NCBI RefSeq assembly: GCF_010730955.1
Contig: NZ_AP022577.1
Span: 310,001-374,000, forward strand
From: Mycolicibacterium aubagnense
GTDB taxonomy: Bacteria > Actinomycetota > Actinomycetes > Mycobacteriales > Mycobacteriaceae
Direction: 5' to 3'
DNA: 64,000 nt
Shown here: in pieces, positions 38,737-49,444 of the stretch
Layout of the letters: each line of letters opens with the position of its first letter
How positions within the stretch are numbered: position 1 is the first letter of the stretch
Made by a program: the position numbers and the translations under genes
Notes under the pieces: generated by a model
The model's database searches: none
What the model was told of the DNA's origin: nothing
The model's input: only the letters and a program-made list of their open reading frames with translations

Positions 38737-40449
38737 CTAGATTTCGTCCGTCAGCCGGAGCGGGGCGATGACGTCGAAGACATCGCCGGGGCCGGGATTT
38801 GTCGGGGATGTCGCCCCGCCGAGTTGGTCCATCACGGCCCACACGGCGTTGAGTGCCGTGGTGATCGCGCCCTCGGCCCATCCCGCCGTCCACGAGATAT
38901 CGTCCCCGGCCAGGTAGATACCGCGATGGCGCGCGTCGAGATCGCGCTGCATGAAGTGGGTGTAGAGCGTCTCCTGGTAGCGGTAGTGGCCCGGCAGGTT
39001 CGCCTTGAACGCACCCATGAAGTTGCGCTCGGTCTCCCACGACACCGTCTTCGGTGTCTCGATGATGTGACTGCGGATGTCGACGTTCGGGTAGATCGCC
39101 TGTAGTGACTTGAGCATGAGGTCCATGCGCTCGGTCGCGTTCAGCGGCACGATCTTCCGGGAGTCGTCCTCCCAGGTGTACGAGAGGCAGATGACGCCGG
39201 GCTTCTCGTTGCCGGCCGCGTCGAGCCCCTGATCCAGCAGATAGGTGCCACGGCTCATCCGGTCGGTCAGCGTCATCGACATGACGTCGCGGCCCTGGGC
39301 GTCCTTGTCCTTCCAGAACGGGCGGTCGACCAAGACGAACACCTTCGACGAACCCATGTAGTGCGTCTGCTCGATGGCCGACCACACGTTCGGCGGGAAC
39401 AGGTCGTCGTCGCAGCGAATGTTGTTGAGCAGCATCCACGATTGGGCGGTGACGATGACAGCGTCGTAGGTGCGCGTCTCCCCGTCGGCGTCGGTGATCG
39501 TGTAGCGGTTGGGATGGGTACGCCGGATGTCGGTGACGGCGCCCCGGGTCCGGCCGCCGTGCAGTGTTTCGAGCGACGTGCCGGCCGGCCAGTGGGCGAG
39601 GCGTTCAGGGGAGCGCTGCCACAGGCGAAGCGGTAGCTGCTGGGAACCGCCCACCACGCCGCGGTGGTTGTCGTCGGCCTCGGTGAGGACGACGCGCAGA
39701 ATCTCGAGCATCGAGCTCGGGTAGTCGGTGTCCCAGCCGCCGGTGCCGAAGCCGACCTTGCCGAAGATCTCGCGCAGCTCGAAGGACTGGAAGTGGTGCG
39801 ACTTGGTCAGGAAGCCCCAGAACGTCTCGTCGTCGAGTTCACGAACCAGCTTGTCCCACGCCGACTTCAGCGCCTGGGTGTCGCGCTCGCGGATGGCGTG
39901 CTGGATCGCGTGCAGATCGGCGCCGTCCTCGAGCGTCTTGCGCCATGCGTCGGCCACGTCGGTGAAGGCCGGTGGCAGGTCGGCGAGTTTCTCGGCGTAG
40001 TACGTCCGGCCCTTGAGGTCGACGACGGTGCTGGGCGCCGCGACCGAGAGCGGGTTCGGGAATTCGATGGTCTCGATGCCGACCTTGTCGAAGTACTCGT
40101 AGAGCGTCGTCGAGGTGGGCGGGAACCGCATGGCACCCATTTCGGCCACCGCGTCGGGGGCGTGCTCGAACGGGATGGACCGCATCCGGCCGCCGATCTG
40201 ATCAGCCTCGTAGACAACGGGTTTGAGGCCCATCTTCATGAGCTCGTAGGCGGCGGTGATGCCGGCGCAGCCGGCGCCGACGATCGCGACCTCGGTGCCG
40301 TGGCGGTCGGCGGGGATGGAGCCGAGGCCCTCGGCCGAGGACACGTAGTCGTCGTAGGCGAAGGGGTAGTCCGGCCCGAACATCGTGATGGGCTTGGCTG
40401 CCGGCTCGTCGGACAGCTGGGTTTCTGCGATGGGCTGGGGGACCGTCAT
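38737..40449 (-). CDS. FAD-dependent amino-acid 2-monooxygenase (arginine or lysine type)
   Basis: 570 residues, similar in size to lysine/tryptophan 2-monooxygenases, which oxidatively decarboxylate an L-amino acid to the one-carbon-shorter amide. After a ~50-residue N-terminal tail (with FAYDDYVSSAEGLGSIPADR, typical of this subgroup) comes the FAD motif VAIVGAGCAGITAAYELMKM and VVYEADQIGGRMRS. A C-terminal FAD segment GIYLAGDDISWTAGWAEGAI follows. The neighbouring amidase (ATGA overlap at 40446-40449) and the ureohydrolase at 44953 point to arginine as substrate. The substrate is inferred from context, not from residues. Confidence 0.85.
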   Translation of the reverse strand: MTVPQPIAETQLSDEPAAKPITMFGPDYPFAYDDYVSSAEGLGSIPADRHGTEVAIVGAGCAGITAAYELMKMGLKPVVYEADQIGGRMRSIPFEHAPDAVAEMGAMRFPPTSTTLYEYFDKVGIETIEFPNPLSVAAPSTVVDLKGRTYYAEKLADLPPAFTDVADAWRKTLEDGADLHAIQHAIRERDTQALKSAWDKLVRELDDETFWGFLTKSHHFQSFELREIFGKVGFGTGGWDTDYPSSMLEILRVVLTEADDNHRGVVGGSQQLPLRLWQRSPERLAHWPAGTSLETLHGGRTRGAVTDIRRTHPNRYTITDADGETRTYDAVIVTAQSWMLLNNIRCDDDLFPPNVWSAIEQTHYMGSSKVFVLVDRPFWKDKDAQGRDVMSMTLTDRMSRGTYLLDQGLDAAGNEKPGVICLSYTWEDDSRKIVPLNATERMDLMLKSLQAIYPNVDIRSHIIETPKTVSWETERNFMGAFKANLPGHYRYQETLYTHFMQRDLDARHRGIYLAGDDISWTAGWAEGAITTALNAVWAVMDQLGGATSPTNPGPGDVFDVIAPLRLTDEI

Positions 40450-41240
40450 CGGGTGTGGTTCTCCTGGTAGAGGTCTCGGCGGCGATCGCTGAGATGGGTG
40501 TTGACGGCGCGGGACACGGCTACCGCGCCGGGATCGACGTGAGTGACGAGGAGTTCCTCGGTGCGGCCACCGCGACTCAGTTCGGTTGTGTCGGGCGCGA
40601 TGGTGCAACTCAGTCCGCAGTACTCGAGGCCGTTCTCGAACCCCGTGCGGTTGACGTACGACAGAAACAGCTGGCTTTCGTAGGCGCGTGCCGGAACGAT
40701 GTGCGTCGCAACGAAACTCCACGGCTCCATCAGTCCGGTGGGGACGACGAGCCACTGGGTGCCGGCGTCGGCGTGGGCGCGGGCGTTCTCGGGGAATTCG
40801 ATGTCGTAGCAGATCAGCAGTCCGCAGGTGATGCCATCGAGCTCGAACTGCGTGACCCACTGCGGGCCCGGGGTGAAGAAGTCGCGGTCGAAGCCGTACA
40901 GATGGGTCTTGCGGTAGTTGGCCAGCGATTGGCCGTCGCGGTCGACGACCTGGACGCTGTTGTACGGCTTACCCGTTGTCGCTTCGGGATAGCCGTAGAC
41001 CACGGCGACTCCGGTGTCGCGCGCAATCTGCTGGACTGCCTGGAAGATCGGGCCGTCGGCGGGCTCGGCGCGCTCGGCGATCGCGGTGCCGATGTTGTAA
41101 CCGGTGGCGGACATCTCGGGTGTGATGACGATCCGGCAGCCGGTGGCGGCGGCCCGTCTGGCCGCCGACGCGATGGCGGCGAGGTTCTCGGCGACGGTCC
41201 CGGATTCCTGGGGACCTTGGAACGTGCCGACGGTGATCAT
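40446..41240 (-). CDS. Nitrilase-superfamily amidase, candidate 4-guanidinobutyramidase
   Basis: 264 residues with the complete Glu-Lys-Cys triad: Glu42 (VITPEMSATG), Lys111 (NYRKTHLYG) and Cys144 (GLLICYDIEFPE). It would hydrolyse the amide made by the adjacent monooxygenase to the free acid and ammonia. It is translationally coupled at both ends: the APC permease stop abuts its ATG (TAG then ATG), and its own stop overlaps the monooxygenase start. This order permease-amidase-monooxygenase supports uptake and degradation of one amino acid. Confidence 0.88.
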   Translation of the reverse strand: MITVGTFQGPQESGTVAENLAAIASAARRAAATGCRIVITPEMSATGYNIGTAIAERAEPADGPIFQAVQQIARDTGVAVVYGYPEATTGKPYNSVQVVDRDGQSLANYRKTHLYGFDRDFFTPGPQWVTQFELDGITCGLLICYDIEFPENARAHADAGTQWLVVPTGLMEPWSFVATHIVPARAYESQLFLSYVNRTGFENGLEYCGLSCTIAPDTTELSRGGRTEELLVTHVDPGAVAVSRAVNTHLSDRRRDLYQENHTR

Positions 41241-42680
41241 CTATGCAGTGTCCACTCGTAGCTTGGATTTCTTGATGCTGTAGCCGAAGTAGACCGCGAG
41301 GCCGAGGGCACCCCAGATGCCGAACGCGATCCACGTCGCGATGGGCAGCGCCCACATCAGGTAGCAGCAGAAGAGAAAGCCCAGCACCGGCGCGACGGGG
41401 AACAGCCGCAGCCGGAACGTGCGGTCGAGGTCCGGCCGCGTCCGCCGCAGGATGATGACGGCGATGTTGACCAGGGCGAAGGCGAACAGGCAGCCGATCG
41501 AGGTGGCATTGGCGAGTTCACCCAGCGACACGAAGCCGGCCAGCAGCGACACGACGACGCCGCAGATGACGATGTTCCAGGTCGGCACGAAGGTCCTGGG
41601 GTTGATCTTGGCAAACAGCGCGGGCACCAGACCGTCGACGGCCATGGTGTAGAGGATGCGGGTCTGTCCGTACTGGACGGCGAGGACGACGCTCGCGATG
41701 GCGATGACGGCCCCGATGGACAGGATGATGGCCGGCACGTTGCTGCTGGTGATGCCGCTGAGCGCGACGGCCAGGGTGGCGCCCTCGTCGGCGCTGAACT
41801 TGGTCCAGCTCATCGCGCCGAGCGCGGCCAGCGCGACAGCGAGGTACAGGACGGTGACGATCAGCAGCGAGGCCATGATGGCGCGCGGCAGGTCGCGCTT
41901 CGGGTTCTTGGCCTCGTTGCCGGCCGTGGACGCCGCGTCGAAGCCGATGTAGGAGAAGAAGACCTGCGAGGCCGCCGCGGACACGCCGACGAAACCGAGC
42001 GGCATGAACGGGGTGAGGTTGCCGGCCTTGAACGCGGTGAAGGCAACGGCGCAGAAGAACACCAGGACGACGCACTTGAGGATGACCATCGCGGTGTTGA
42101 CGACGGCAGATTCGGACGCCCCTTTGAGCAGCAGGATCGACGCGAGCACGACGATCGCGATGGCCGGCAGGTTGATGACGCCGCCCTCGCCGGGCGCGCC
42201 GGTGACGGCGGCGGGGAGTTCGATGCCGAGGAGCTGCTGCAGCAGCGTGTTGATGTAGCCGCCCCAGCCGACGGCCACAGCCGCGACGGACACGCCGTAC
42301 TCGAGCATCAGACACCAGCCGCACACCCAGGCCCAGAACTCACCCATGGTGGCGTAGGCGTAGGAGTAGGAGCTTCCGGAGACCGGGATGGTGCCGGCGA
42401 GCTCGGCGTACGACAGTGCCGAGAACAGCGCGGTGACGGCGGCGAGGATGAACGAGAGCAGGACCGCAGGACCGGCTTTCGGCACGGCGGCACCGAGAAT
42501 GACGAAGATTCCGGTGCCGAGCGTGGCGCCGATCGACAGGGCGGTCAGATGGACGAATCCCATCGACCGTTTGAGGTGGGGTCCGTCGGTGGTTTCGTTC
42601 GCGGCGACGATGTCGTCAACCGACTTTTGTGCGCTCATGGCGCGCAGAATGCCCGGCCGTCGGGCCTGGATGATGGCCAA
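41241..42680 (-). CDS. APC-family amino-acid permease
   Basis: 479 residues with about 12 membrane helices, cationic amino-acid transporter (CAT-like) type. Signatures: GFVHLTALSIGATLGTGIFVILGAAV at the first helix, PVSGSSYSYAYATMGEFWAWVCGW, and FFSYIGFDAASTAGNEAKNPKRDLPRAI. The last motif is characteristic of the CAT subgroup, which carries arginine and lysine. I list the TTG at 42680, which has GGAG seven bases upstream; an ATG at 42638 would shorten it by 14 residues. First gene of the minus-strand unit. Confidence 0.9.
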   Translation of the reverse strand: MAIIQARRPGILRAMSAQKSVDDIVAANETTDGPHLKRSMGFVHLTALSIGATLGTGIFVILGAAVPKAGPAVLLSFILAAVTALFSALSYAELAGTIPVSGSSYSYAYATMGEFWAWVCGWCLMLEYGVSVAAVAVGWGGYINTLLQQLLGIELPAAVTGAPGEGGVINLPAIAIVVLASILLLKGASESAVVNTAMVILKCVVLVFFCAVAFTAFKAGNLTPFMPLGFVGVSAAASQVFFSYIGFDAASTAGNEAKNPKRDLPRAIMASLLIVTVLYLAVALAALGAMSWTKFSADEGATLAVALSGITSSNVPAIILSIGAVIAIASVVLAVQYGQTRILYTMAVDGLVPALFAKINPRTFVPTWNIVICGVVVSLLAGFVSLGELANATSIGCLFAFALVNIAVIILRRTRPDLDRTFRLRLFPVAPVLGFLFCCYLMWALPIATWIAFGIWGALGLAVYFGYSIKKSKLRVDTA

Positions 42681-42775
42681 GGGAGAGCTCCGTGGAGAGG
42701 AGGGCGCGCCACGAGATTTGTGACTCGCGTAACAGAGTGCGGTACGTCACTCCGATCTGTCAACACGTGGAGTGA

Positions 42776-42796
42776 CCTAGGAAACAATTGTTGCCT
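42776..42796. promoter_or_regulatory. Candidate operator between APC and NCS1 permease genes
   Basis: GGAAACAA-TTGTTGCC (42780-42795) is a palindrome with one mismatch, inside CCTAGGAAACAATTGTTGCC. The same CCTAGGAAACAA string stands before the XRE-cupin gene. It lies 62-77 bases before the NCS1 start and 100-115 bases before the APC start, suitable for controlling both. Confidence 0.6.
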
Positions 42797-42857
42797 TCAC
42801 TGCGTCCGCTGCCTACTCTATGGAGCAGTGATCTGAGCCACATCAAAGGGGATGGCC

Positions 42858-44261
42858 ATGGCAGGTGCAATCGAGACCCGGTCCATCGACTGGATCCCGA
42901 ACCGGGAACGCCGGGGCAAGGTGCATCACCAGGCGCCGTTCTGGTTCACCGGGAACTTCGTGTTGACCACGATGGTCACGGGCTTCCTCGGGCCGGCCAA
43001 CGGCTTGTCCGCCGGGTGGTCGGTGCTGGCCGCGGTCGCGGGCGCCTGCTTCGGGACGCTCTTCATGTGCTTCCACGCCAACCAGGGCCCCACAATGGGC
43101 CTGCCGCAGATGATCCAATCGCGTGCCCAGTTCGGCTCGCGCGGCGCCCTCGTCCCGTTTGTCGCCGTGATCTTCGTGTACATCGGCTTCAACGTCTTCA
43201 ACACAATCCTGGCGACCTCGGGCTTCAAGACGGTCTTCGCCGGCCCCAACTGGCTCTGGTACCTCGGGCTGATGGTGGCGGCCATCGTCATCGCCGTCGT
43301 CGGCTTCGACCTCATGATGGTCGTGCAGCGGTGGCTGACCTACCTGCTGATCATCGTGTTCGGCGTCCTGACCGTCTATGCGCTGTCGACGTTGCACTTG
43401 AATGCCGCCGTTCCGGACGGCGGCACGTTCGCCCTGACGGTTTTCCTGATGCAGTTCGCCGCGGCGGCCGGCTATCAGATCTCCTACGCGGTGTACGTGT
43501 CCGACTACTCGCGATACCTGCCCGAGAACACCTCGGCCAAGCACGTCATCTGGTGGACGTATCTGGGCGCGGCCGGCTCGTCGGTGTGGCTGATGTCGTT
43601 CGGCGCGGTGCTGGCATCGGCACTGCCGACGCCGGACGCGATCGCCTCGATCCAGACTGTCGGCAACCAATTATTGCCCGGCTTCGGCACTTTCACCGTC
43701 GTGGTGTCCTCGGTGGCGCTGGTGACGATCATGTCCGTCAACGCCTACGGGGCGAGCCTGACGAGCATGAGTGCCCTCGACGCCTTCCGTCCGATCACCC
43801 CGACCGTGCGGTTGCGCGTCATCGGCATCGCGCTCACGTCGTTCATCGCGTTCGTCGTCGCGTTGTCGCTGCCCGCGGGTTACCTCGAGTCGTTCAACGT
43901 CTTCGTGCTGCTCATGCTGTACTTCCTGATCCCGTGGACCGCGGTCAATCTGGTGGACTTCTATTTCGTCCGGCACGGGCACTACTCGATTGTCGACATC
44001 TTCCGGCCGGATGGGATCTACGGCCGCTGGTCGTGGCGTGGACTGGCCGCCTACCTCCTGGGCATGGTGTCGATGGTGCCGTTCGTCTCGCTGACGTTCT
44101 TCGAGGGTTCCATCGCCAAGATGCTTGGGGGAGTGGATATCTCGTTCATCGTAGGCCTGGCGGTGTCGGGGCTGGCGTACTACATCCTGACGCGCGGCGT
44201 CGATCTGAGTGGCGAGCATGCCGCTGTCGACCGCAGCCGTCAGGAACTGGCCGCCGCATAG
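42858..44261 (+). CDS. NCS1-family nucleobase/cation symporter
   Basis: 467 residues with about 12 membrane helices. Starts at the ATG at 42858, since AAAGGGG lies six bases upstream; an ATG two codons earlier would abut that site. Family features are the WFTGNFVLTTMVTGFLGP first helix, ANQGPTMGLPQMIQSRAQFGSRG and YVSDYSRYLPENTSAKHVIWW. NCS1 proteins import cytosine, purines, allantoin, hydantoins or thiamine. In this cluster a guanidino compound or urea-cycle metabolite is possible but unproven. Confidence 0.88.
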   Translation: MAGAIETRSIDWIPNRERRGKVHHQAPFWFTGNFVLTTMVTGFLGPANGLSAGWSVLAAVAGACFGTLFMCFHANQGPTMGLPQMIQSRAQFGSRGALVPFVAVIFVYIGFNVFNTILATSGFKTVFAGPNWLWYLGLMVAAIVIAVVGFDLMMVVQRWLTYLLIIVFGVLTVYALSTLHLNAAVPDGGTFALTVFLMQFAAAAGYQISYAVYVSDYSRYLPENTSAKHVIWWTYLGAAGSSVWLMSFGAVLASALPTPDAIASIQTVGNQLLPGFGTFTVVVSSVALVTIMSVNAYGASLTSMSALDAFRPITPTVRLRVIGIALTSFIAFVVALSLPAGYLESFNVFVLLMLYFLIPWTAVNLVDFYFVRHGHYSIVDIFRPDGIYGRWSWRGLAAYLLGMVSMVPFVSLTFFEGSIAKMLGGVDISFIVGLAVSGLAYYILTRGVDLSGEHAAVDRSRQELAAA

Positions 44262-44267
44262 CGGCGG

Positions 44268-44864
44268 CTATTCGGCCTCGGCCAGCCGCCGGTGGGCCAG
44301 GGCCGGGGTCAGCACCCACAACACCTTCGCGCCGGACTGTGCGTCGGCGTGGAAGGCATGCGGGCGATCGGCCTCGAAGGTCAGCGCATCGCCCTGGTTG
44401 AGGGTGATGCGGCTGCCGTTGCCCTCGACGAAATCGATGTGCAGCCGGCCCTCGATGACCATGGCGAACTCCACCTCGGCCGGTAGCGAGTAGGTGTCGG
44501 TGCCGCTGCCGCCGCCGGGTTCGATGTCGCTCAGCAGGACCTGGAAGCGCCGCTCGCCCGTCGGGGTCAGCTGAAACTCGCTCATCTTCGTGCCGCCGAA
44601 TTCGATGGGCGGGTACGCCCCGGCGCGGACCACCTCGCCGACGGGTGTTTCGTCGAAGAGCGAGCCGACCTGCAATTCCAGCGCGTCGCAGATGCGGATG
44701 AGCGCGGCGACCGACGCGTTGGACTGGCCGCGCTCGACCTTTGACAGATAGCCCTTGGTCACGCCACTGGTCGCGGCGAGTTCGTCGAGAGTCATGCGCT
44801 TGGCGCTGCGCGCAGCCTTCAACCGAGCGGCGATGGTCAGTTGTGTTGCCGGGGAACCGCCCAC
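44268..44864 (-). CDS. XRE-family regulator with C-terminal cupin sensor
   Basis: 198 residues. The N-terminal Xre helix-turn-helix is RMTLDELAATSGVTKGYLSKVERGQSNAS (residues ~22-50). The C-terminal cupin (about 115-190) has the paired strands TYSLPAEVEFAMVIEGRLHIDF and LNQGDALTFEADRPHAFHADA. E. coli PuuR, which controls putrescine use, has the same architecture. GTG start at 44864 with AGGAGG five bases upstream. It is the obvious regulator of the cluster and is divergent from the ureohydrolase. Confidence 0.9.
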   Translation of the reverse strand: MGGSPATQLTIAARLKAARSAKRMTLDELAATSGVTKGYLSKVERGQSNASVAALIRICDALELQVGSLFDETPVGEVVRAGAYPPIEFGGTKMSEFQLTPTGERRFQVLLSDIEPGGGSGTDTYSLPAEVEFAMVIEGRLHIDFVEGNGSRITLNQGDALTFEADRPHAFHADAQSGAKVLWVLTPALAHRRLAEAE

Positions 44865-44872
44865 AATTTCCT

Positions 44873-44917
44873 CCTAGGAAACAAAGGTTGACAATAATTC
44901 TACTGCCGGAAACAATG
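44873..44917. promoter_or_regulatory. Promoter-operator of the ureohydrolase gene with two GGAAACAA sites
   Basis: GGAAACAA occurs at 44877-44884 and 44908-44915. TTGACA (44888-44893) and AACAAT (44911-44916) with a 17-base spacer form a good promoter for the gene at 44953; the second GGAAACAA covers its -10. The first copy is within CCTAGGAAACAA, exactly as before the NCS1 gene. Confidence 0.6.
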
Positions 44918-44952
44918 AGACCCAAGCCACACGCCACGAATTTGGAGAACCG

Positions 44953-45963
44953 ATGAGCTTCGACCGGTACATCAAGACCACCGCACCCGACGGCCGCGAG
45001 ATCGTCGGCCAGGTCGATGCCAGCCGCTTTCCGCGCTATGCCGAACCGGCGACGTTTGCCCGCGTCCCGCGCCTGGATCAGGTGTCGGCACCGGACGTCA
45101 CGATCCTCGGCGTCCCATTCGACACCGGCGTGTCCTACCGCCCTGGTGCCCGCTTCGGTCCCGGCCACATCCGCGCGGCCTCGAAGCTGCTGCGGCCCTA
45201 CAACCAGGCGCTCGACGTGTCGCCGTTCGCCAATCAGCAGGTCGCCGACGCCGGCGACATCGGGGTCAACCCGTTCAACATCAACGAGGCGATCGAGACC
45301 ATCGACTCCGAGGTGACCGCGCTGCGCAAGGACGGCAGCGCCGTGCTGACGCTCGGCGGCGACCACACCATCGCCCTGCCCATCCTGCGCTCACTGCACC
45401 GCGACCACGGCCCCATCGCCGTGCTGCATTTCGACGCCCACCTGGACACCTGGGACACCTACTTCGGCGCGGCGTACACGCACGGCACCCCGTTCCGCCG
45501 GGCCAGCGAAGAGGGCCTCATCGACATGGAGCGCTCGCTGCACCTGGGTATCCGCGGCCCGCTCTACAGCAAGCAGGATCTCGAGGACGACGCGATCCTC
45601 GGTTTCCAGGTGATCCGGTCCGACGACTACGAGGTCGACGGGCTGGCCAGCGTGCGTGAGCGCATGGTCAAGCGCTTGACCGGCCAGGGCGGGCGAAGCG
45701 ACGGGAAAAGCGGCCCTCCGGTCTACGTCTCGGTCGACATCGACGTGCTCGACCCAGCGCACGCGCCCGGCACGGGCACGCCGGAAGCCGGGGGCCTGAC
45801 CTCGCGGGAACTGTTGCACTCGCTGCGTTCGCTCACCGGCCTGAACGTCGTCGGCGCCGACATCGTCGAGGTATCACCGGCCTATGACCACGCCGAGATG
45901 ACGGGAATCGCGGCCGCGCATGTCGGCTACGAGCTGCTGTCGGTGATGAGCGCGAACCGGTAA
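44953..45963 (+). CDS. Ureohydrolase (agmatinase/guanidinobutyrase family)
   Basis: 336 residues, Mn-dependent arginase fold. Metal ligands are all visible: His138 (GGDHT), Asp161, His163 and Asp165 (DAHLDTWD), and Asp262 and Asp264 ([18 protein letters not shown]). The family removes urea from agmatine, 4-guanidinobutyrate or related compounds. No arginine decarboxylase is in the cluster, whereas an amino-acid monooxygenase and amidase are, so 4-guanidinobutyrate is the likelier substrate and GABA the product. ATG start with GGAG five bases upstream. Confidence 0.92.
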
Positions 45964-45970
45964 CTGCCGC

Positions 45971-46537
45971 TTACGGTTTGCGGCGCACCGACGCCTCGAC
46001 GATGTCGAGCACGGCGGCCAGGTCTTCGCCGGTCTGGCCCGAGGCGAGCCGCGCGATGAGGCCGTCGAGCACGAGGTCGAGATAGATGTGCAGCACTTCG
46101 GTGGGCACGTCGTCACGCAACGTGCCGGCGGCCTTCTTGCGCTCCAGGCGGGCGATGGTGGCCTGGTTGAGTTCCTCGTAGCGCTGCTGCCACTCGGCGC
46201 GGAACTCGGCGTCGGTGCGCAGCCGGCGGGCGATCTCCAGCCGGGTGCCCAGCCATTGGTAGTTCTCGGGTTTGGCGAGCATGTTCCGCATCACTTGGAC
46301 GAGGCCGTCCTTCTCGACGGTCTCGGCCATGCGCTCACCGTCCTCTTCGGCGAGCGCGAAGAACAGCGCGTCCTTGTCGCGGAAATGATGGAAGATCGCA
46401 CCGCGTGACATCGCGGTGGCTTCTTCCAGAAGCCGGACGGTCGCACCCTCGTACCCGAACTCGGAAAAACAGCGTCGGGCGCCGTCGAGGATCTGCGCTC
46501 GGCGGGCGGCGAGGTGGTCGTCACTTACTTTGGGCAC
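45971..46537 (-). CDS. TetR-family regulator (Rv1474c-like)
   Basis: 188 residues from the GTG at 46537, which has AGGAG upstream and gives the length I recall for Rv1474c. The N-terminal helix-turn-helix is GYEGATVRLLEEATAMSRGAIFHHFRDKDALF. The C-terminal ligand domain is helical and Leu/Arg-rich. It lies directly downstream of acn on the same strand, as in M. tuberculosis, and is likely tied to aconitase regulation. It converges on the ureohydrolase gene with a seven-base gap. Confidence 0.9.
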   Translation of the reverse strand: MPKVSDDHLAARRAQILDGARRCFSEFGYEGATVRLLEEATAMSRGAIFHHFRDKDALFFALAEEDGERMAETVEKDGLVQVMRNMLAKPENYQWLGTRLEIARRLRTDAEFRAEWQQRYEELNQATIARLERKKAAGTLRDDVPTEVLHIYLDLVLDGLIARLASGQTGEDLAAVLDIVEASVRRKP

Positions 46538-46555
46538 CAGGACTCCTACTGGTGA

Positions 46556-46598
46556 GCGGGTGGGTGGCACCCCGTCGTCCGGGGCACCACCCAACCGC
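46556..46598. terminator. Hairpin between acn and the TetR gene
   Basis: Arms 46556-46573 and 46581-46598 pair along 18 bases with three mismatches around a seven-base loop (GTCGTCC). It follows the acn stop by about 20 bases and precedes the TetR start, so it probably attenuates read-through. Confidence 0.55.

Positions 46599-46615: not shown

Positions 46616-49444
<2,829 letters not shown>

What the first reader, a model, noticed from the sequence alone, without database searches (positions are those of the whole stretch)
38737..45963. A complete candidate arginine 2-monooxygenase pathway as one gene cluster
Seen: an FAD amino-acid monooxygenase, an amidase with a full Glu-Lys-Cys triad, a CAT-type amino-acid permease (three coupled genes), then an NCS1 permease, an XRE-cupin regulator and a ureohydrolase with all six metal ligands. 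Known: arginine can be degraded by arginine 2-monooxygenase to 4-guanidinobutyramide, then by an amidase to 4-guanidinobutyrate, then by guanidinobutyrase to GABA and urea. Inferred: the cluster encodes that route. Lysine to 5-aminovalerate would explain the first two enzymes but not the ureohydrolase. Its combination with an NCS1 permease and a PuuR-like regulator seems unusual.
Basis: partly seen in the sequence, partly recalled or inferred. Interest (0 to 1): 0.75.

Follow-up and report, generated by a model that had tools for sequence, protein, structure and literature searches.

The report
Arginine-degrading gene cluster with own regulator
This stretch of an environmental-type mycobacterial genome very probably encodes a complete oxygen-dependent route that turns the amino acid arginine into GABA and urea, together with its own regulator; the route itself is known chemistry, but its genes usually carry generic or misleading labels.

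Summary
The arginine 2-monooxygenase reading is well supported, not proved. (1) Across 251 genomes of the family, this type of monooxygenase lies within 5.7 kb of the ureohydrolase in 58 of 59 genomes (the exception is a fragment at a contig end); a second type, which groups with the solved lysine enzyme 3we0, does so in 0 of 18. (2) The ureohydrolase has the carboxylate-capping Arg of guanidinobutyrase GbuA; agmatinases 7lol and 4dz4 lack it. (3) Some relatives sit beside GABA aminotransferase or a TPP enzyme resembling 5-guanidino-2-oxopentanoate decarboxylase. (4) An operator-like site, GGAAACA-N3-GTTGMC, occurs exactly twice in the 6.3-Mb genome, before both operons of this cluster, and follows the XRE gene across genera. 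Corrections: the regulator is not PuuR; the ureohydrolase is outside the GbuA clade and has Tyr at GbuA Met161; known pocket contacts do not separate arginine from lysine enzymes. NCS1 is confined to the mycobacterial version. New here: the cluster, the operator and a likely annotation correction.

The parts
38737..40449 (-). FAD-dependent amino-acid 2-monooxygenase, 570 aa, proposed arginine 2-monooxygenase (type A)
   Evidence: PF01593; best solved relative 3we0, 717.8 bits; start and ATGA overlap with the amidase
40446..41240 (-). CN-hydrolase amidase, 264 aa, proposed 4-guanidinobutyramide amidase
   Evidence: PF00795, 156.7 bits; PEM, RKTHLY, ICYD motifs
41241..42680 (-). CAT-type amino-acid permease, 479 aa from TTG or 465 aa from ATG 42638
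   Evidence: PF13520, PF13906; TIGR00906 cationic amino acid permease 298.2 bits, below its cut-off, and other APC models score higher, so cargo is open
42780..42795 (.). Operator-like site GGAAACAATTGTTGCC between the divergent CAT-amidase-monooxygenase operon and NCS1
   Evidence: one of only two GGAAACANNNGTTGMC sites in the genome
42852..44261 (+). NCS1-type permease, 469 aa, cargo unknown
   Evidence: PF02133, 164.4 bits; no close solved relative, best Mhp1 hydantoin transporter at E 0.089
44268..44864 (-). XRE-cupin transcriptional regulator, 198 aa
   Evidence: HTH and Cupin_2 domains
44877..44892 (.). Operator-like site GGAAACAAAGGTTGAC; overlaps a TTGACA (44888-44893, -35-like) in the regulator/ureohydrolase intergenic region; a further GGAAAC lies 31 bp on at 44908
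44953..45963 (+). Ureohydrolase, 336 aa, proposed 4-guanidinobutyrase; only arginase-family gene in the genome
   Evidence: PF00491, 306.7 bits; single match in the genome; six metal ligands and RPYN cap

Best explanation
A catabolic regulon for the arginine 2-monooxygenase pathway. The CAT permease probably brings in arginine; the FAD enzyme converts arginine with O2 to 4-guanidinobutyramide and CO2; the amidase gives 4-guanidinobutyrate and ammonia; the ureohydrolase gives GABA and urea; GABA aminotransferase and urease elsewhere in the genome finish the job. The XRE-cupin protein probably binds two GGAAACA-N3-GTTG sites, one overlapping a -35-like box before the ureohydrolase, and most likely represses until a pathway compound binds its cupin domain. 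Shown: gene order, coupling, residues, linkage across genera, operator-like sites. Inferred: all substrates, binding by this regulator, direction of regulation, effector, NCS1 cargo.
For: Type-A monooxygenase next to the ureohydrolase in 58 of 59 genomes against 0 of 18 for the second type. 3we0 falls with the second type, 100/99. Ureohydrolase: best solved relatives are hydrolases of guanidino acids; GbuA-type Arg cap in 47 of 52 relatives including the window, absent in 7lol and 4dz4; Arg role from passages of PMC9772407. GABA aminotransferase near 5 of 22 type-A loci and 6 of 20 ureohydrolase loci without linked monooxygenase, 0 of 18 second-type loci. Operator-like site twice in the genome, both here; in 12 of 15 type-A loci with the XRE gene and 0 of 7 without. 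GABA aminotransferase and urease over cut-off in the genome. A Streptomyces 'agmatinase', Medi2865, hydrolyses 4-guanidinobutyrate to GABA in print (passages of PMC5704753).
Against: No activity shown. 3we0 itself acts on arginine and ornithine as well as lysine (passages of PMC5832979), so family membership does not fix the substrate, and Asp238 is shared by all types. Ala254 and Gly515, seen in type A, also occur in 7 of 18 second-type sequences. The ureohydrolase has Tyr at Met161 of GbuA, as in 3-guanidinopropionase, and lies outside the GbuA clade. NCBI's agmatinase equivalog model accepts it, 217.6 against 174.3, though it also accepts GbuA, GpuA and PAH. A rule in print (passage of PMC12462448) would call a PF01593 gene beside PF00795 a lysine monooxygenase. 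GABA aminotransferase is not next to the window cluster itself. An Orn/Lys/Arg decarboxylase is present, so agmatine could be made.
Confidence: 0.8

Rival explanations
1. Lysine degradation: monooxygenase and amidase make 5-aminovalerate (DavB/DavA-like), and the ureohydrolase is an unrelated neighbour.
For: Nearest solved enzyme is lysine-active 3we0; Asp238 conserved; the rule quoted in PMC12462448 (passage) would give lysine.
Against: 58 of 59 linkage with a ureohydrolase that lysine does not need, 0 of 18 for the type that includes 3we0; shared operator-like sites before both operons.
Confidence: 0.07
2. Same pathway logic, but the ureohydrolase prefers another guanidino compound (3-guanidinopropionate, or 4-guanidinobutyramide before the amidase acts), so the steps or side substrates differ from the textbook order.
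For: Tyr at the Met161 position as in 3-guanidinopropionase; G067 and G050 carry amidase next to ureohydrolase while only a second-type monooxygenase lies elsewhere in the genome.
Against: Passages of PMC10833137 give Tyr also in the strict Aspergillus guanidinobutyrase; an Arg cap suits an acid better than an amide; GABA aminotransferase neighbours fit a C4 product.
Confidence: 0.06
3. The ureohydrolase is an agmatinase and the cluster joins two unrelated functions.
For: TIGR01230 agmatinase model passed; related plasmid genes are annotated speB where annotated; a decarboxylase of the Orn/Lys/Arg family is present.
Against: The same model passes GbuA, GpuA and PAH; no RPYN cap in the agmatinases 7lol and 4dz4, which form their own clade; no SpeA over cut-off.
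Confidence: 0.03

Closest known systems
Arginine monooxygenase and 4-guanidinobutyramide hydrolase of azalomycin-producing Streptomyces (PMC5082578, passages)
   Same: First two steps, arginine to 4-guanidinobutyramide to 4-guanidinobutyrate
   Different: There the acid is activated with CoA as a polyketide starter; here a ureohydrolase, a regulator and permeases make it a degradation route. The proven sequences were not at hand
L-amino acid oxidase/monooxygenase of Pseudomonas sp. AIU 813 (3we0, 5yb6-5yb8)
   Same: Same enzyme family; all catalytic-cage and Asp238 contacts kept
   Different: Groups with the second type; Ala515, Gln258, Cys254 and second-site Glu140, Gln349 differ
Guanidinobutyrase GbuA of Pseudomonas aeruginosa (3nio)
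   Same: Metal ligands and RPYN carboxylate cap
   Different: Separate clade; Tyr instead of Met161; in PAO1 it serves the arginine dehydrogenase pathway (title of a reference seen)
Medi2865 ureohydrolase of Streptomyces mediocidicus (PMC5704753, passages)
   Same: Actinobacterial protein annotated agmatinase that turns 4-guanidinobutyrate into 4-aminobutanoate
   Different: Its sequence was not at hand; orthology to the window gene is inferred from single 63-64% relatives in S. morookaense, S. abikoensis and S. triculaminicus

Membership tests
Basic amino-acid 2-monooxygenase (L-AAO/MOG type) | Arg102, Tyr416, Phe473, Trp516, Trp418, Trp235 and Asp238 (3we0 native numbering) | tested here: met
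   All identical in the window; list of contacts from passages of PMC5832979
Basic amino-acid 2-monooxygenase (L-AAO/MOG type) | Preference for arginine over lysine | not testable with these tools
   Context only:
Lysine 2-monooxygenase clade (with 3we0) | Grouping with 3we0 in a tree | tested here: not met
   3we0 with the 18 second-type rows and L210, 100/99; window outside
4-guanidinobutyrase | Six metal ligands of the ureohydrolase fold | tested here: met
4-guanidinobutyrase | Arg cap for the carboxylate (GbuA R72) | tested here: met
   role from passages of PMC9772407
4-guanidinobutyrase | Met161-position residue as in GbuA | tested here: inconclusive
   Tyr in the window; Tyr also in strict Aspergillus GBase and in GpuA (passages of PMC10833137)
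4-guanidinobutyrase | Clade with GbuA 3nio | tested here: not met
   3nio groups with a Caballeronia gene; the window is in a separate clade of 48 rows
4-guanidinobutyrase | Hydrolysis of 4-guanidinobutyrate | not testable with these tools
   No assay
Agmatinase | Passing NCBI's agmatinase equivalog model | tested here: inconclusive
   Passed, but GbuA, GpuA and PAH pass too, so it does not discriminate
Agmatinase | Clade with solved agmatinases 7lol and 4dz4 | tested here: not met
   long branches flagged
PuuR regulator | NCBI PuuR model cut-off | tested here: not met
   38.5 bits, cut-off 211

The most novel reading that the evidence does not exclude
A self-contained regulon of just two operator sites: an XRE-cupin sensor dedicated to arginine-monooxygenase intermediates, reading GGAAACA-N3-GTTG with a second half-site three helical turns on over the ureohydrolase promoter; and, in mycobacteria, an NCS1 permease recruited to carry a guanidino acid, which would be a new cargo for that transporter family as far as I recall.
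Probability: 0.35. Interest if true: 0.6.

Novelty: new member of a known kind. Interest (0 to 1): 0.45.

Why it matters
It gives testable genes and a regulator for a classical pathway, separates arginine-type from lysine-type monooxygenases by context, and suggests that a large actinobacterial group annotated as agmatinase consists of guanidino-acid hydrolases. The two-site operator makes the regulator directly testable.

Tried and rejected
Agmatinase label as evidence: rejected after the control. Asp238 as an arginine marker: rejected, present in all 31 type-A, 18 second-type and 12 Streptomyces rows. Gly515/Ala254 as arginine markers: weakened, since 7 of 18 second-type rows share them. Met161 as decisive: rejected (passages of PMC10833137). 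Rooting the monooxygenase tree with tryptophan monooxygenase: its branch is so long that only unrooted splits are used, and the bootstrap had not settled. NCS1 cargo: left open, no close solved relative. Not used: structure prediction, fold search, two of three protein-homology searches, two of twelve genome searches, and any genome sample beyond the family other than 12 of the 73 Streptomyces loci.

Dropped before counts: a 47% fragment of G056 was left out and two pieces in G143 were merged; the lists are capped but sorted by E-value. In one search three loci (L169-L171) gave no row, and two short matches (L248, L251) gave none.
Full report
Observation. The window lies at G000:C1:310001-374000 of a 6.32-Mb genome in two contigs. 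The CAT stop abuts the amidase start and the amidase stop overlaps the monooxygenase start. The ureohydrolase is the only arginase-family match in the genome.

The monooxygenase. The nearest solved structure is L-AAO/MOG of Pseudomonas sp. AIU 813 (3we0, 717.8 bits), then tryptophan 2-monooxygenase (208.5 bits). Passages of PMC5832979 describe 3we0 as acting on lysine, ornithine and arginine, with monooxygenase kcat/Km of 74, 200 and 24 per s and mM (lysine at pH 7, the others at pH 9). Its contact residues were mapped with an offset of 20 for the tag; all 15 named residues then carry the expected letter in 3we0. The window keeps Arg102, Trp235, Asp238, Tyr416, Trp418, Phe473 and Trp516, and differs at Ala515 (Gly), Gln258 (His) and Cys254 (Ala), and at second-site Glu140 (Lys), Glu344 (Asp) and Gln349 (Pro). 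The paper ties Gly at 515 to wider pockets in the aromatic enzymes; that this would suit a guanidinium group is my inference, and 7 of 18 second-type rows also have Gly there. In a 67-row tree 3we0 falls with the 18 second-type rows and an alphaproteobacterial row (100/99); 12 Streptomyces rows, one from the violaceusniger group, and a Haloechinothrix row join that branch (99/99); the window groups with the mycobacterial and Smaragdicoccus-Nocardiaceae rows (100/100), and the remaining type-A rows are not resolved into one clade.

Linkage. Of 251 genomes of the family, 77 have a monooxygenase match of at least 50% identity. Of the 59 at 60% or more, 58 have the ureohydrolase within 5,643 bases; the remaining one is a fragment at a contig end. 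Of the 18 at 53-58%, none has it near: 11 have it further off or on another contig, 7 have none at 50% or more. Fisher p is 1e-16 without correction for kinship. Of 21 sampled genomes of the window's own genus only G000 has a monooxygenase of this level, so the cluster is patchy there. A Tsukamurella tyrosinosolvens plasmid has XRE regulator, 'agmatinase', permease, carbon-nitrogen hydrolase and oxidoreductase in one row. In Streptomyces the amidase, the monooxygenase and often the permease are together without a ureohydrolase in the stretch held; in 12 of 12 such genomes searched a 63-65% ureohydrolase lies elsewhere.

The ureohydrolase. Best solved relatives are guanidinobutyrase 3nio (255.4 bits), proclavaminate amidinohydrolase (243.0) and 3-guanidinopropionase (240.4), then agmatinases (185.8 and below). 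Passages of PMC9772407 describe GbuA R72 as a cap from the neighbouring subunit that could reach the carboxylate of the substrate, and passages of PMC8125230 give Trp68 or Glu at the matching place of agmatinases. The window has Arg in the RPYN context of GbuA; 47 of 52 relatives aligned have Arg there, the five exceptions being relatives at 39-56% identity, and 22 of 23 further ones, the exception at 34%. At Met161 the window has Tyr; passages of PMC10833137 give Tyr for 3-guanidinopropionase and for the Aspergillus enzyme that it calls highly specific for 4-guanidinobutyrate. In the tree the actinobacterial sequences form their own clade of 48 rows (100/97), the two agmatinases another (100/100), GbuA and GpuA a third (95/85); several long branches were flagged. 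PMC5704753 (passages) reports that Medi2865, annotated agmatinase, hydrolysed 4-guanidinobutyrate to 4-aminobutanoate.

Neighbours. GABA aminotransferase lies near 5 of 22 type-A loci and 6 of 20 ureohydrolase loci without a linked monooxygenase, against 0 of 18 second-type loci; it is not near the window's cluster. A TPP enzyme lies near the ureohydrolase in 2 of those 20 loci, 1 of the 22 and 8 of the 12 main Streptomyces genes. The one from L179 is best matched by the 5-guanidino-2-oxopentanoate decarboxylase model, 335.7 bits, below its cut-off of 500; the Arthrobacter one is matched second best by it. I take these as other routes to 4-guanidinobutyrate, so that compound is the common denominator.

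Regulation. GGAAACA-N3-GTTGMC occurs twice in the genome, both in this cluster, and the pattern read backwards never; 0 of 100 shuffles of the window reach two. The shorter GGAAAC-N4-GTTG is in 12 of 15 type-A loci that have the XRE gene, 0 of 7 without it, 6 of 6 named mycobacterial loci, 0 of 20 loci without linked monooxygenase, and 1 of 18 second-type loci, 4 kb from the genes. Fisher p for the first contrast is 0.0007, uncorrected for kinship. In 7 of the 15 loci sites precede both operons. The three XRE loci without an exact match (L200, L202, L203) show diverged forms by eye. The site before the ureohydrolase overlaps TTGACA, and another GGAAAC follows 31 bp on in the window, L190, L191, L193, L194 and L195, 32 in L198. 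This fits a repressor covering the -35 box; that the XRE-cupin protein is the binder is inferred from co-occurrence.

Downstream and alternatives. The genome has one GABA aminotransferase over the curated cut-off and urease alpha. No SpeA passes its cut-off, but one Orn/Lys/Arg decarboxylase is present, so agmatine cannot be excluded. A rule in print for Pseudomonas (passage of PMC12462448) tells lysine from tryptophan monooxygenase genes by a PF00795 neighbour; applied here it would say lysine, which shows that the rule needs a third class.

NCS1. It is in the window and in 5 of 6 named mycobacterial loci; in the sixth (L013, a MAG) XRE and CAT lie too close to hold it. None of the other 21 type-A loci has a match at 24% identity and 55% length. 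A Caballeronia plasmid with a ureohydrolase of the GbuA clade has a cytosine permease four genes away, a weak hint that such permeases may carry a guanidino acid.

Known and new. Arginine monooxygenase and the amide hydrolase are in print for Streptomyces (passages of PMC5082578; passages and a legend of PMC10322714). From recall only, the full route was worked out in actinobacteria decades ago. Searches for 'arginine 2-monooxygenase', '4-guanidinobutyramide', 'arginine monooxygenase', '4-guanidinobutanamide', 'arginine oxygenase' and guanidinobutyrase or guanidinobutyrate combinations listed no title or abstract start that describes a degradation cluster of this make-up with regulator and operator. 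The library holds open-licence papers only, so subscription and older work is not covered.

Noticed in passing
L169-L175, L184, L185: In most of these loci the ureohydrolase lies a few genes from a Rieske oxygenase, a D-2-hydroxyacid dehydrogenase and an amino-acid-type ABC transporter, in several also a class II aldolase and gabT/gabD: possibly another guanidino-compound degradation cluster.
   Followed up: partly
L186 and L187 (genomes G067, G050): Type-A amidase (59-60%) next to the ureohydrolase (77-78%) without a type-A monooxygenase; only a second-type monooxygenase elsewhere in the genome.
   Followed up: no
L202 and L203 (genomes G042, G061): Two different ureohydrolases flank one monooxygenase cluster.
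   Followed up: no
L222, L255-L257: Sodium:solute symporter, ureohydrolase and TPP decarboxylase-like gene in a row in Arthrobacter and Streptomyces: a second module around the same hydrolase family.
   Followed up: partly
window 44953-45963 and relatives: NCBI's agmatinase equivalog model accepts the solved guanidinobutyrase, guanidinopropionase and proclavaminate amidinohydrolase above its cut-off, so the name agmatinase is given too widely.
   Followed up: yes
window 45971-46594: A TetR-type regulator lies between the ureohydrolase and a large gene at 46616-49432 that I take for aconitase by recall.
   Followed up: no
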